From NCBI GenBank assembly GCA_023255875.1, contig JAGDVY010000013.1, positions 1 through 54,001 of the forward strand: a stretch of DNA of 54,001 bases, given 5' to 3'. The notes beneath the pieces are model-generated. The model ran no database searches and was not told where the DNA came from. It was given only the letters and a program-made list of their open reading frames with translations. This document shows, in pieces, positions 39,398 to 42,541 of this stretch. The position numbers and the translations under genes were made by a program. Each line of letters opens with the position of its first letter. Position 1 is the stretch's first letter. The DNA is from Hydrogenobacter sp. (GTDB lineage Bacteria > Aquificota > Aquificia > Aquificales > Aquificaceae).

Positions 39398-39470
39398 CTG
39401 GGGTGCCTGGACTCGAACCAGGAGCCCCCGGATCCAAAGTCCGGTGCTCTGCCAGTTGAGCTACACCCCA
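39398..39470 (-). tRNA. tRNA-Gln (TTG)
   Basis: A 73-nt cloverleaf on the minus strand. Acceptor TGGGGTG pairs with CACCCCA; anticodon stem CCGGA/TCCGG surrounds loop CTTTGGA, giving anticodon TTG; the T arm carries GGTTCGAGTCC. Discriminator G; CCA not encoded. The first 10 bases of the tRNA contain the TAG stop codon of ispE, so the gene for the tRNA overlaps the upstream coding region. Confidence 0.94.
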
Positions 39471-40288
39471 TTATAGCTTCTAACTTGATAAAGCCTCCAT
39501 CCGCGCAAAAGGGCACCTTTTTTTACCTCTTCCGATGCCTCACCTATATAAAATATACAAGAACCACTTCCACTTACCATAGGTCTGTATCCCAAATGCT
39601 CAACAAATCTATAAACCTCTCTCATCTCAGGAAAGAGCTCCATAGCGAGCTCTCCCAAACGGTTCTCCAAAACCTCAAACCTACCTTCTAATACACTCTG
39701 TATTATTTTATCACTATCCAAGTTAGGTGTCAATGATGTATGACTAACCATGGAGTAAACCCTGCGCGTGCTTACCTGAAGATTTGGGTATATGAGCGTG
39801 ATCTTTAAATCCACATGTCTAATAGGTTCTATCTTTTCTCCTCTACCTCTACCCACTGCGGTACCACCATATAGGAAAAATACAGCATCAGAAGACACAC
39901 TTTGGGCTATCTCTTTTAGCTCTTCTATGCTTAGAGGCTCACCCAACAAACTGTTTATGGCTTTTAACACCACAGCGCAGTTGGACGACCCACCACCCAA
40001 TCCAGCACCCTGTGGTATGTTCTTGTGGATATACACGCTAAACTCCAGCTCTTTACCCAAGCGCCTTTCCATAAGCCTAAGAGCCTTATAAACAAGGTTT
40101 TCCTCTTGTGGTATGTTATTGCTCGTTTCCACTTTTAGAGGACCTTCTTTTATAAACACCTCGTCAAACAATGAAACAGCATGATATATGGTGAATATCT
40201 CATGATAGCCATCATCTCTCTTTCCCAAAAGCCACAACCCAAGGTTCACCTTTGCAGGGGAAAGAAGTTTTACCACAAATTTACTCAT
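39461..40288 (-). CDS. ispE: 4-diphosphocytidyl-2-C-methyl-D-erythritol kinase
   Basis: A 275-residue GHMP kinase of the MEP isoprenoid pathway. Motifs: 'LSPAKVNLGLWLLGKRDDGYHE' at the start, the ATP-binding 'NIPQGAGLGGGSSNCAVVL' and 'MVSGSGSCIFYIG' near the C-terminus. The last 10 bases overlap the 5' end of tRNA-Gln. The start at 40288 is divergent from the cas6 remnant across 21 bp. Confidence 0.95.
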   Translation of the reverse strand: MSKFVVKLLSPAKVNLGLWLLGKRDDGYHEIFTIYHAVSLFDEVFIKEGPLKVETSNNIPQEENLVYKALRLMERRLGKELEFSVYIHKNIPQGAGLGGGSSNCAVVLKAINSLLGEPLSIEELKEIAQSVSSDAVFFLYGGTAVGRGRGEKIEPIRHVDLKITLIYPNLQVSTRRVYSMVSHTSLTPNLDSDKIIQSVLEGRFEVLENRLGELAMELFPEMREVYRFVEHLGYRPMVSGSGSCIFYIGEASEEVKKGALLRGWRLYQVRSYNGV

Positions 40289-40309
40289 TTTGGCTTATTT
40301 TAACATAAT

Positions 40310-41054
40310 ATGATACTTAGAATAACCCTCTCCGCAGAAGATAATATACGCCTTCCTAAAAGTTATAACCATTATCTGCAAGCCTTTTTCTACAAAAACA
40401 TGGATCCCATACTTTCCAATTTTCTCCACAACATAGGGTTTGTTTATAACAAAAGAAGGTTTAAGCTATTCACTTTTTCCAAAATAATAGGTAAAATAAT
40501 AAAAAAGGAAGGAGATTTCATAGTTTTTGATAACAACATTACTGTTTATTTTGCATCACCTTTGATAGATATAGTTTCCTCTTCTGTAAAAAATCTTATA
40601 AAAAACGATGAACTTTTCCTTGTAAATAACAAGCTGTATTTGAATTCTGTAGATGTAATAAAGCCAGAAATTAAACAAGAGGATATTATCGTAAGGTGTC
40701 TATCGCCTATAACTGTATATACAACTCCTTTGGGACAAAGAAGGTTTCAATATCTCAATCCGTGGGACGAAAAATTCTATCAGATCATCAAAGATAACCT
40801 GCTTAAGAAGTATGAAATTATTTATTTATAGTAGGTCCTACAGAGGGGAGCTACAGGTGGAACCCGTAAAGATATGTCAGAAGTACAAGAAAAAGGTAGT
40901 TTATAGAAAAACATTAATAGAGGCATGGGAAGGATACTACAGGATAAAGGGAAGCAAGGAGATTTTAAAGCTTGCTTTGGAAGCAGGCTTAGGTGCAAAA
41001 AACCCACAAGGATTTGGTATGGTGGAGGTAGTAAAAAATGTTGAAAGCTCTTAG
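40310..41054 (+). pseudogene. cas6: cas6 CRISPR endoribonuclease, frameshifted by a 4-bp tandem duplication
   Basis: Two frames together make a full Cas6. The first (40310-40831, 173 residues) has the N-terminal ferredoxin-like domain ('IRLPKSYNHYLQAFFY', 'RRFKLFTFSKI', and a candidate catalytic His in 'NFLHNIGF'). The second (to 41054) carries the C-terminal glycine-rich RNA-binding loop 'GLGAKNPQGFGMVEV'. The break lies at three tandem TTAT units (40818-40829). Deleting one unit restores 'KKYEIIYSRSYRGELQ' and a continuous 246-residue protein. The frame is +1 shifted, so a truncated protein without the RNA-binding loop is expected, unless slippage restores it. Confidence 0.85.
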
Positions 41055-41211
41055 AGATATAGGAGAGCTGTATGGAAAAATAGAGATTTACGATCCTGTA
41101 GAAGCTGAAGAAGTATTAATTCTGGAGTTTGACAAAGACGGAAATTTTATAAAAGTAGATTTAGAGGAATTTTCAAAAGGAAACCTCATTTCTTTAAAAA
41201 ATTGCATCTAA
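41038..41211 (+). pseudogene. N-terminal stub of a type I-B large subunit (Csh1/Cas8-like)
   Basis: An ATG at 41038, overlapping the 3' end of cas6 by 17 bp, opens a frame of 57 residues ending at TAA 41209-41211. The sequence 'MLKALRDIGELYGKIEIYD' followed by 'VLILEFDKDGNFIKVDLEEF' resembles the start of TM1802/Csh1-type Cas8b proteins, which are normally several hundred residues long. Position right after cas6 fits a type I-B operon. The rest of the gene and all of cas7, cas5, cas3, cas4, cas1 and cas2 are absent from the window. Family assignment from only 57 residues is tentative. Confidence 0.55.
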
Positions 41212-41229
41212 ACAAAGAATGACAAGCAT

Positions 41230-41281
41230 CTGTCTATCTCCAGGGTTTTTGTGAGATTGGAGGTCGACAGGAAATTTTTTT
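41230..41281 (+). terminator. Hairpin with T-tract after the cas remnant
   Basis: A 13-position stem (CTGTC.ATCTCCA pairs with TGGAGGT.GACAG, one T-C mismatch and one G-T wobble) spans 41230-41270 with a 15-base loop. It is followed by a seven-T run at 41275-41281. It has the shape of an intrinsic terminator closing the former cas operon before the CRISPR leader promoter. Confidence 0.6.
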
Positions 41282-41284
41282 CAC

Positions 41285-41313
41285 TTGACACACATGAGTT
41301 TTGGGTATATTAT
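41285..41313 (+). promoter_or_regulatory. CRISPR leader promoter
   Basis: TTGACA (41285-41290) is followed by exactly 17 bp and TATTAT (41308-41313), an almost perfect sigma-70 promoter. It points rightward towards the solitary CRISPR repeat about 60 bp downstream. Transcription would start near 41320, run through the leader and repeat and continue antisense to coaBC. No coding frame follows, so a leader function is the natural reading. Confidence 0.75.
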
Positions 41314-41372
41314 TAGCATAGCCATATGGCCGTAGAACTTGACAACTGAATATGTTTTGGCGATCCTTTGGG

Positions 41373-41402
41373 GTTTATTAGGTACCTATAAGGAGTTGAA
41401 AC
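41373..41402 (+). CRISPR. Solitary 30-bp CRISPR repeat (spacerless array)
   Basis: The 30 bases start GTTTATTAGGTACCTA and end TAAGGAGTTGAAAC. This matches type I-B repeats of thermophiles, which share the core GTACCTAT-AGG and the 3' GTTGAAAC/ATTGAAAC that becomes the crRNA 5' handle. It contains the palindrome AGGTACCT (41380-41387). The orientation agrees with the upstream promoter and cas6. No second copy follows within reach, so this is an array with no spacers. The first of its bases used by coaBC is 41378; the repeat encodes the last residues of that protein. Confidence 0.72.
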
Positions 41403-42541
41403 ACTCTATTTACTATGGTTTCTGCGGAGATCTGCTTTTGTGTGAGCTCTATCTGTTCCTCTCTACCATCTGCATAGAGTATGTATCCTTTGTGAAACTC
41501 CCTATCCATGACCTCTAAAGGATTAGCTATTAGCATGTCAAGGTTTTTTCTTCTTAGTTTTTCCCAGCTGTTTTTCAAAAGCTCCTTCTCCTCCTCAAGG
41601 GAAAAGCCTATTAAAAGCTTTCCTCTCTTGTTCTTTCCAAGCTCTTCAAGGATGTCTGGTGTTTTTATAAGCTCAAGGTTTATCCTTTCTGTTTTTTTTA
41701 TCTTACCTGTATATTTCATAGCAGGAGTGTAGTCCGAAACAGCTGAATTCATAACAATTATGTCAGCCCAATCTCTTAGCTCCATCACTTTCTGGTACAT
41801 GTCCTGTGTGGATACTACTCTGTGTATCTCAACTTCTGGGGGTTCTTCCGCTGTGGTAAAGCCAGCTATTACTTTCACATCCGCACCGTACCATCTAAAG
41901 GCGCTTGCTAAGGCAAAGCCCATTTTACCGCTGGAGGAGTTAGATATAAAACGCACTTGGTCTATGTATTCCCTTGTGGCACCGCACGTGATGAGGACCT
42001 TTTTGTTTTTTAGGGGTTTTGGTCTTGTTGCGTACTCTATCCAATCAAGAATTCTCTTTTCGCTTGCGAGCTTTCCCTGTCCCTCTTCTTCACAGACAAG
42101 CTTTCCCTCTTCTGGTTCTATAATAATGTGTCCCAAAGACTTTAGCTTTTCTGTGTGTTCCTTTACGATGGGGTTTGTGTACATGGAAACGTTTCCTGCT
42201 GGTGCTATTAGAAGCTTGCCAGTGTATGCAAGAACGGTAGACGTAAGAAGGTTATCACCTATCCCAAGGGCTATCTTGGATAGTGTGTTTATACTGCAGG
42301 GAGCTATAAGGAAAACATCGCACCATCTTGCGAGGTTTATGTGCGCCAAAGGGTCATCTTCCCACTGGGAATAAACTTTATTACCACTTAGAGCTTCAAA
42401 GGTGAGCTTGCTTATAAACTTTTCGGAAAAGGGGGTCATGATAACTTTCACTTGGTAGTTCTTTTTCCGCAGGGACCTTATTATGTCACAAACTTTGTAT
42501 ATGGCAATGCTCGAAGATACACCAATGAGAACTTTTGTCAT
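41378..42541 (-). CDS. coaBC: Bifunctional phosphopantothenoylcysteine decarboxylase / phosphopantothenate-cysteine ligase
   Basis: A 387-residue fusion for coenzyme A synthesis. CoaC part (about 1-180): '[18 protein letters not shown]', catalytic His in '[11 protein letters not shown]', flavin-binding '[21 protein letters not shown]', Cys of the substrate clamp in '[10 protein letters not shown]'. CoaB part (from about 183): '[20 protein letters not shown]' and '[10 protein letters not shown]'. In the usual PxMNxxMW motif, Met is replaced by Gly and Trp by Tyr ('[11 protein letters not shown]'). The last codons ('FQLLIGT') and the stop lie inside a CRISPR repeat. It overlaps kdsC by 4 bp. 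Confidence 0.93.

What the first reader, a model, noticed from the sequence alone, without database searches (positions are those of the whole stretch)
41285..41402. Spacerless CRISPR: leader promoter plus one repeat
A near-consensus promoter (TTGACA, 17 bp, TATTAT) lies about 60 bp before a single 30-bp repeat with the type I-B core and the GTTGAAAC handle. No second repeat or spacer follows. This is what remains when an array loses all spacers, or a naive leader-repeat that never acquired one. A leader plus one repeat is also the minimal substrate for Cas1-Cas2 integration, so it could accept spacers if adaptation genes exist elsewhere in the genome.
Basis: partly seen in the sequence, partly recalled or inferred. 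Interest (0 to 1): 0.85.

Follow-up and report, generated by a model that had tools for sequence, protein, structure and literature searches.

The report
Collapsed type I-B CRISPR-Cas locus
In a small-genomed heat-loving bacterium (apparently Hydrogenobacter), a bacterial immune locus has collapsed by mutation to a broken gene, a gene stub, its control region and one repeat with no stored memories; this is a known kind of decay, here caught next to sister genomes that still keep the intact version.

Summary
A TTGACA-17-TATTAT promoter (41285-41313) lies 59 bp before one 30-bp repeat (41373-41402), which differs at one base from the repeat of two full arrays in a same-genus genome, G002. Just upstream lie cas6, frameshifted by a 4-bp insertion, and the first ~140 bp of cas8b. 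Next comes a junction where ~5.9 kb of G002's sequence (rest of cas8b, cas7, cas5, cas3, a cas2 scrap) is missing. Then come the leader and one repeat. The repeat ends exactly where coaBC homology begins, and its antisense strand now encodes CoaBC's last seven residues and stop. The genome has no detectable cas1, so new spacers are not expected. It keeps a cas1-less type III-A module with its own Cas6, and short arrays of another repeat behind near-identical leaders. Sister genomes form a decay series: complete (G004), adaptation genes lost (G002), collapsed (here), absent (G001). Remnant-after-decay is well supported; a 'naive, never used' array is not. Degraded single-repeat loci are a known kind. 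Unexplained: the junction falling exactly at the repeat's end.

The parts
39461..40288 (-). ispE, intact, divergent neighbour of cas6 (flank)
   Evidence: ORF; orthologues in four same-genus genomes; in G002 and G001 ispE is next to an hsdM-like gene instead
40310..40831 (+). cas6 5' part (173 aa)
   Evidence: PF21350 + PF01881, TIGR01877; 97.7% aa identity to G002 Cas6
40812..41054 (+). cas6 3' part in another frame; a 4-bp insertion (tandem duplication in ATTATTTATTTATAG, about 40814-40828) breaks the reading frame
   Evidence: PF01881 positions 59-125; DNA alignment to G002 shows the 4-bp insertion
41038..41211 (+). cas8b (Csh1/TM1802) 5' stub, 57 aa with a foreign tail; homology to G002 cas8b ends at 41179
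   Evidence: tblastn with G002 Cas8b E 2e-14; blastn
41180..41187 (.). deletion junction with 8-nt filler GAAACCTC; ~5.9 kb of the G002 locus (rest of cas8b, cas7, cas5, cas3, cas2 scrap) missing
   Evidence: two collinear blastn blocks, window 40263-41179 and 41188-41405, lie 5.87 kb apart in G002
41188..41225 (+). pre-leader sequence shared with G000:C38 and C25 and with the G002 array
41226..41372 (+). CRISPR leader, one of at least nine full or partial copies in this genome
41285..41313 (+). sigma-70-like promoter TTGACA-17-TATTAT inside the leader
   Evidence: copy comparison
41373..41402 (+). single type A CRISPR repeat
   Evidence: one mismatch to the G002 array repeat
41378..41401 (-). 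repeat-encoded CoaBC C-terminus: residues FQLLIGT plus stop, read antisense through the repeat
   Evidence: sisters end ...VINLLNGYGV...VINLLNTLGEKLV etc.
41403..42541 (-). coaBC; homology to G002 and RSWP5 begins exactly at 41403

Best explanation
A type I-B CRISPR-Cas locus (cas6-cas8b-cas7-cas5-cas3-...-leader-array) that has decayed in place. A deletion of about 5.9 kb, in G002 coordinates, removed everything from codon ~50 of cas8b to just before the leader. A 4-bp slippage-type insertion knocked out cas6. The array shrank to a single repeat, and a chromosomal rearrangement joined the end of that repeat to the 3' end of coaBC. Shown: the parts, the homology, the junctions and the absence of cas1. 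Inferred: order of events, loss of spacers by repeat-repeat recombination or by the rearrangement itself, and present-day lack of immune function. The leader promoter may still start an antisense transcript running through the repeat into coaBC.
For: Window 40263-41179 aligns at 93% to G002 cas6 plus the cas8b start, and 41188-41405 at 94% to the G002 pre-leader, leader and first repeat, same order and strand, 5.87 kb apart in G002. G002's genes there are Cas6, Cas8b/Csh1, Cas7/Csh2, Cas5h and Cas3, followed by 7 repeats, with a second array of about 11 repeats facing it. The complete form is in G004, with cas4, cas1b, cas2 and about 36 repeats. No other remnant of cas8b-cas3 is in the genome, and no cas1. 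G001 has neither this Cas6 family nor the leader. In sisters coaBC ends differently, and in three of four is followed by tRNA-Pro(CGG); here the tRNA lies on C39 after a relA-like 3' end.
Against: The genome is a 42-contig draft, and the other leader copies lie at or near contig ends, so further arrays or cas genes may be unassembled. No reads were available to confirm the cas6 frameshift or the repeat/coaBC junction. Cas6 is strongly conserved against G002 (dN/dS 0.07; 0 non-synonymous of 7 changes after the frameshift), so the break is very recent or, less likely, an error.
Confidence: 0.92

Rival explanations
1. Naive leader-repeat that never acquired a spacer, or a new minimal array awaiting Cas1-Cas2.
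For: A leader plus one intact repeat is the minimal integration substrate (established knowledge); the repeat is not degenerate (1 mismatch to G002).
Against: Decayed cas6 and cas8b stub directly upstream in G002 order; G002 keeps arrays on this leader and repeat; no cas1 in the genome.
Confidence: 0.03
2. The array held a self-targeting spacer matching the 3' end of coaBC. CRISPR cleavage or recombination between that spacer and coaBC broke the chromosome there, fusing repeat to coaBC, displacing the tRNA-Pro gene and selecting for loss of the cas genes. (A cause for the collapse, compatible with the best explanation.)
For: coaBC homology starts at exactly the first base after the repeat in two sister comparisons; about 3 in 67 by chance if breakpoints fall evenly on a repeat-spacer unit. 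Sisters show coaBC-tRNA-Pro adjacency that is broken here. Self-targeting is known to reshape genomes (PMC3630108).
Against: No surviving spacer in either genome matches coaBC; the PAM is unknown; an exact junction also arises if the array's last repeat happened to abut the breakpoint.
Confidence: 0.1
3. Solitary repeat unit acting as an RNA anti-CRISPR (Racr) left by a phage or other mobile element.
For: A single repeat with its own promoter resembles a solitary repeat unit (PMC10651486).
Against: No match to the repeat in viral contigs, none of the leader and repeat in phage records, none of the locus in plasmids; it has the host array's own leader and cas remnants, not phage neighbours.
Confidence: 0.02
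4. Chance repeat-like sequence in the coaBC 3' region.
For: The repeat overlaps the predicted coaBC stop.
Against: 29/30 identity to G002 array repeats, 0 expected by chance; absent from coaBC in all sisters.
Confidence: 0.01

Closest known systems
Complete type I-B CRISPR-Cas locus of same-genus genome G004 (L082; 1,743,135 bp, probably Hydrogenobacter thermophilus, by size only)
   Same: Gene order cas6-cas8b-cas7-cas5-cas3 ahead of a leader and array; repeat 27/30 identical
   Different: G004 keeps cas4, cas1b, cas2 and about 36 repeats; the window keeps only broken cas6, a cas8b stub, the leader and one repeat
G002 type I-B locus (L081)
   Same: 93-94% identical DNA over cas6, cas8b start, leader and repeat
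   Different: Effector genes present and two arrays; cas4 and cas1 gone from the locus and only a cas2 fragment left; sits elsewhere in the genome
Degraded CRISPR/cas loci of Escherichia, Shigella and Salmonella (PMC2886076)
   Same: Frameshifts, truncations and cas deletions, with repeat number falling to a few as cas genes decay; single-repeat loci were accepted there
   Different: Enterobacterial subtypes (Ecoli, Ypest) found by fixed position; here found de novo in a thermophile, with the repeat fused to a core gene
Solitary repeat units / Racr (PMC10651486, PMC8616872)
   Same: One promoter-driven repeat without spacers
   Different: Those are carried by viruses and inhibit Cas; this is a chromosomal relic with its own leader and cas remnants

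Membership tests
CRISPR array | At least two direct repeats separated by unique spacers | tested here: not met
   One repeat only; coaBC coding DNA follows at 41403
CRISPR array | Repeat belongs to a bona fide array family | tested here: met
   One mismatch to repeats in two G002 arrays, three to the G004 array
CRISPR array | Leader upstream of the first repeat | tested here: met
   About 147-bp leader conserved in other own copies and in G002
Type I-B CRISPR-Cas | Signature cas8b with cas7, cas5, cas3, cas6 | tested here: not met
   Only broken cas6 and a cas8b stub remain; the complete set is in G002 and G004. It derives from I-B but is no longer one
Type I-B CRISPR-Cas | Adaptation genes cas1/cas2 | tested here: not met
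   No PF01867 hit in the genome at 99.86% completeness; cas2 was not searched separately
Degraded (relic) CRISPR-Cas locus | Recognisable cas pseudogenes and reduced array where relatives keep a full locus | tested here: met
Degraded (relic) CRISPR-Cas locus | Loss of immune function | not testable with these tools
   Needs small-RNA sequencing and interference assays
Solitary repeat unit / Racr | Carried by a virus or other mobile element | tested here: not met
   No hits in viral contigs, phage or plasmid records; cellular genes on both sides
Solitary repeat unit / Racr | Repeat RNA binds and sequesters Cas proteins | not testable with these tools
   Experimental only

The most novel reading that the evidence does not exclude
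The leader promoter still transcribes repeat plus antisense coaBC RNA, and the surviving type III-A module with its own Cas6 processes it into a crRNA-like guide against coaBC mRNA. Because the coaBC message itself now ends in the antisense of the repeat, the guide's 5' handle would pair with the target flank. That would permit RNA cleavage but mute Cas10 signalling: a CRISPR relic turned into a self-tolerant cis-antisense regulator of coenzyme A synthesis.
Probability: 0.03. Interest if true: 0.75.

Novelty: new member of a known kind. Interest (0 to 1): 0.33.

Why it matters
It gives a clean decay series of one type I-B locus within one genus: complete (G004), adaptation genes lost (G002), effector operon and spacers lost (this genome), nothing left (G001). 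This agrees with the idea that arrays shrink as cas genes go. It also shows a CRISPR repeat becoming coding sequence of a core gene through a rearrangement, and warns that shared leaders break draft assemblies, so spacer counts from such drafts are lower bounds.

Tried and rejected
Chance match rejected. coaBC-conserved element rejected. Phage or plasmid origin of the solitary repeat: no hits. Surviving spacers matching coaBC: none among 26 spacers of G002 and this genome, searched against the sequences held. Programmed frameshifting in cas6 considered and judged unlikely: G002 lacks the 4 bp and I see no slippery +1 site (inspection). The RNA fold of the type A repeat is weak (-2 kcal/mol, no better than shuffles), unlike the type B repeat (-9.5, z -2.7), so no structural argument was made.

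Full report
Observation. A perfect 30-mer GTTTATTAGGTACCTATAAGGAGTTGAAAC is at 41373-41402, unique in the window with none expected by chance. A TTGACA-17-TATTAT promoter is at 41285-41313. The promoter match alone is not significant (1.8 expected), but it lies in a leader that recurs in the genome.

Surroundings. 40310-40831 and 40812-41054 are the two halves of one Cas6 in different frames. 41038-41179 is the start of cas8b. The same-genus genome G002 carries the intact version: Cas6, Cas8b/Csh1, Cas7/Csh2, Cas5h and Cas3, then leader and 7 repeats, with a second array of about 11 repeats facing it. Aligned to G002, the window has two collinear blocks (40263-41179 at 93%, 41188-41405 at 94%) that lie 5.87 kb apart in G002. 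The missing DNA is the rest of cas8b, cas7, cas5, cas3 and the cas2 scrap. An 8-nt filler (41180-41187) marks the junction. The cas6 break is a 4-bp insertion in a TTAT/ATTT-rich stretch. Nothing else of cas8b-cas3 is found in the genome at DNA level.

Decay series. G004 has the complete locus: cas6, cas8b, cas7, cas5, cas3, cas4, cas1b, cas2, leader and about 36 repeats. G002 has lost cas4 and cas1 from this locus and keeps only a cas2 C-terminal fragment (compared with G004's Cas2; a cas1 of G002 lies elsewhere). The window genome has the collapsed form. G001, whose coaBC and 3' flank are identical in my comparison to those of Hydrogenobacter sp. RSWP5, has neither this Cas6 family nor the leader nor cas1. 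Genus Hydrogenobacter is inferred from that record title; no tool names the window's organism.

Adaptation. No Cas1 (PF01867) is detectable in the 1.25-Mb genome at 99.86% completeness, while 30 of the 41 genomes searched have one and controls ring. New spacers are therefore not expected here. Cas2 was not searched separately.

The genome's other CRISPR parts. The leader occurs in full or in part at C18, C38, C3, C6, C25, C9, C13 and C11, all at or near contig ends, so assembly broke at the leaders. C18 carries the same type A repeat, one spacer and a degenerate last repeat. C3, C6, C13 and C11 carry type B repeats (GTTTTTAAGCCCACTGTGTGGGATTGAAAC) in short arrays of up to five in this assembly. 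C2 holds a type III-A module (Cas10/Csm1, Csm2-5) with its own Cas6 of PF10040. The genome is thus not CRISPR-free; it has lost the I-B arm and, as far as can be seen, adaptation.

The coaBC junction. In G002, G003 and G004 coaBC is followed by tRNA-Pro(CGG). Here homology to G002 and RSWP5 coaBC starts at exactly 41403, the base after the repeat. CoaBC's last residues FQLLIGT and its stop are read from the antisense of the repeat. The tRNA and the sequence beyond it are on contig C39, after a relA-like 3' end. So a rearrangement broke coaBC from its tRNA and fused it to the repeat. Landing within one base of the repeat end has a chance of about 3 in 67 if breakpoints are even over a repeat-spacer unit (my estimate). 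It would follow naturally if the spacer was itself coaBC-derived, or if the array's last repeat abutted the break. I cannot separate these.

History. G002's cas6 is preceded by a scrap of about 29 bp matching the start of ispE, while G002's intact ispE lies elsewhere beside an hsdM-like gene. Cas6 is less diverged at synonymous sites (dS about 0.15-0.18) than coaBC (0.30) or ispE (0.46), p = 0.0003 for the pooled comparison. Both suggest that the G002 copy came from a donor with cas6 next to ispE, as in the window; this is inference from few sites. Cas6 dN/dS of 0.07, with no amino-acid change after the frameshift, says cas6 was under selection until recently, so the break is recent or a sequencing error.

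How it works now. Most likely it does not work as immunity. The leader promoter differs from other copies by a 2-bp deletion and may still fire, giving an antisense RNA across the coaBC 3' end.

Comparison with known kinds. Degraded CRISPR/cas loci, with repeat number falling as cas genes decay and single-repeat cases accepted, are documented in Escherichia, Shigella and Salmonella (PMC2886076). Aquificales are known to have many arrays, some without adjacent cas genes (PMC4227106). This is a new, unusually legible example, not a new kind.

Noticed in passing
G000:C18, C38, C3, C6, C25, C9, C13, C11 (L002, L006-L012): At least eight further full or partial copies of the same leader, all at or near contig ends, driving two different repeat types; the draft assembly breaks at CRISPR leaders.
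   Followed up: partly
L136:8557-19927 (G000:C2): Cas1-less type III-A operon with a PF10040 Cas6; directly upstream of cas10 on the same strand are two large ORFs, 792 aa with no Pfam or NCBIfam hit and 838 aa with only a helicase C-terminal domain in Pfam.
   Followed up: partly
L081:16173-16201 (G002): A scrap of about 29 bp of the ispE 5' end lies next to cas6 in G002 although intact ispE is elsewhere: a possible footprint of the locus having moved from an ispE-adjacent site.
   Followed up: partly
L081:5961-8749 (G002): Between G002's two facing arrays sit a phage-integrase-family recombinase and an actin-like ParM/MreB-type protein, suggesting a mobile or plasmid-like segment.
   Followed up: no
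L138:5000-5600 (G000:C4): A type B repeat array whose upstream sequence differs from the common leader and resembles the leader of another G002 array (L137:8800-9104) that has a third repeat type.
   Followed up: no
window 41378-41401: A CRISPR repeat read antisense supplies the last seven residues and the stop codon of the core gene coaBC.
   Followed up: yes
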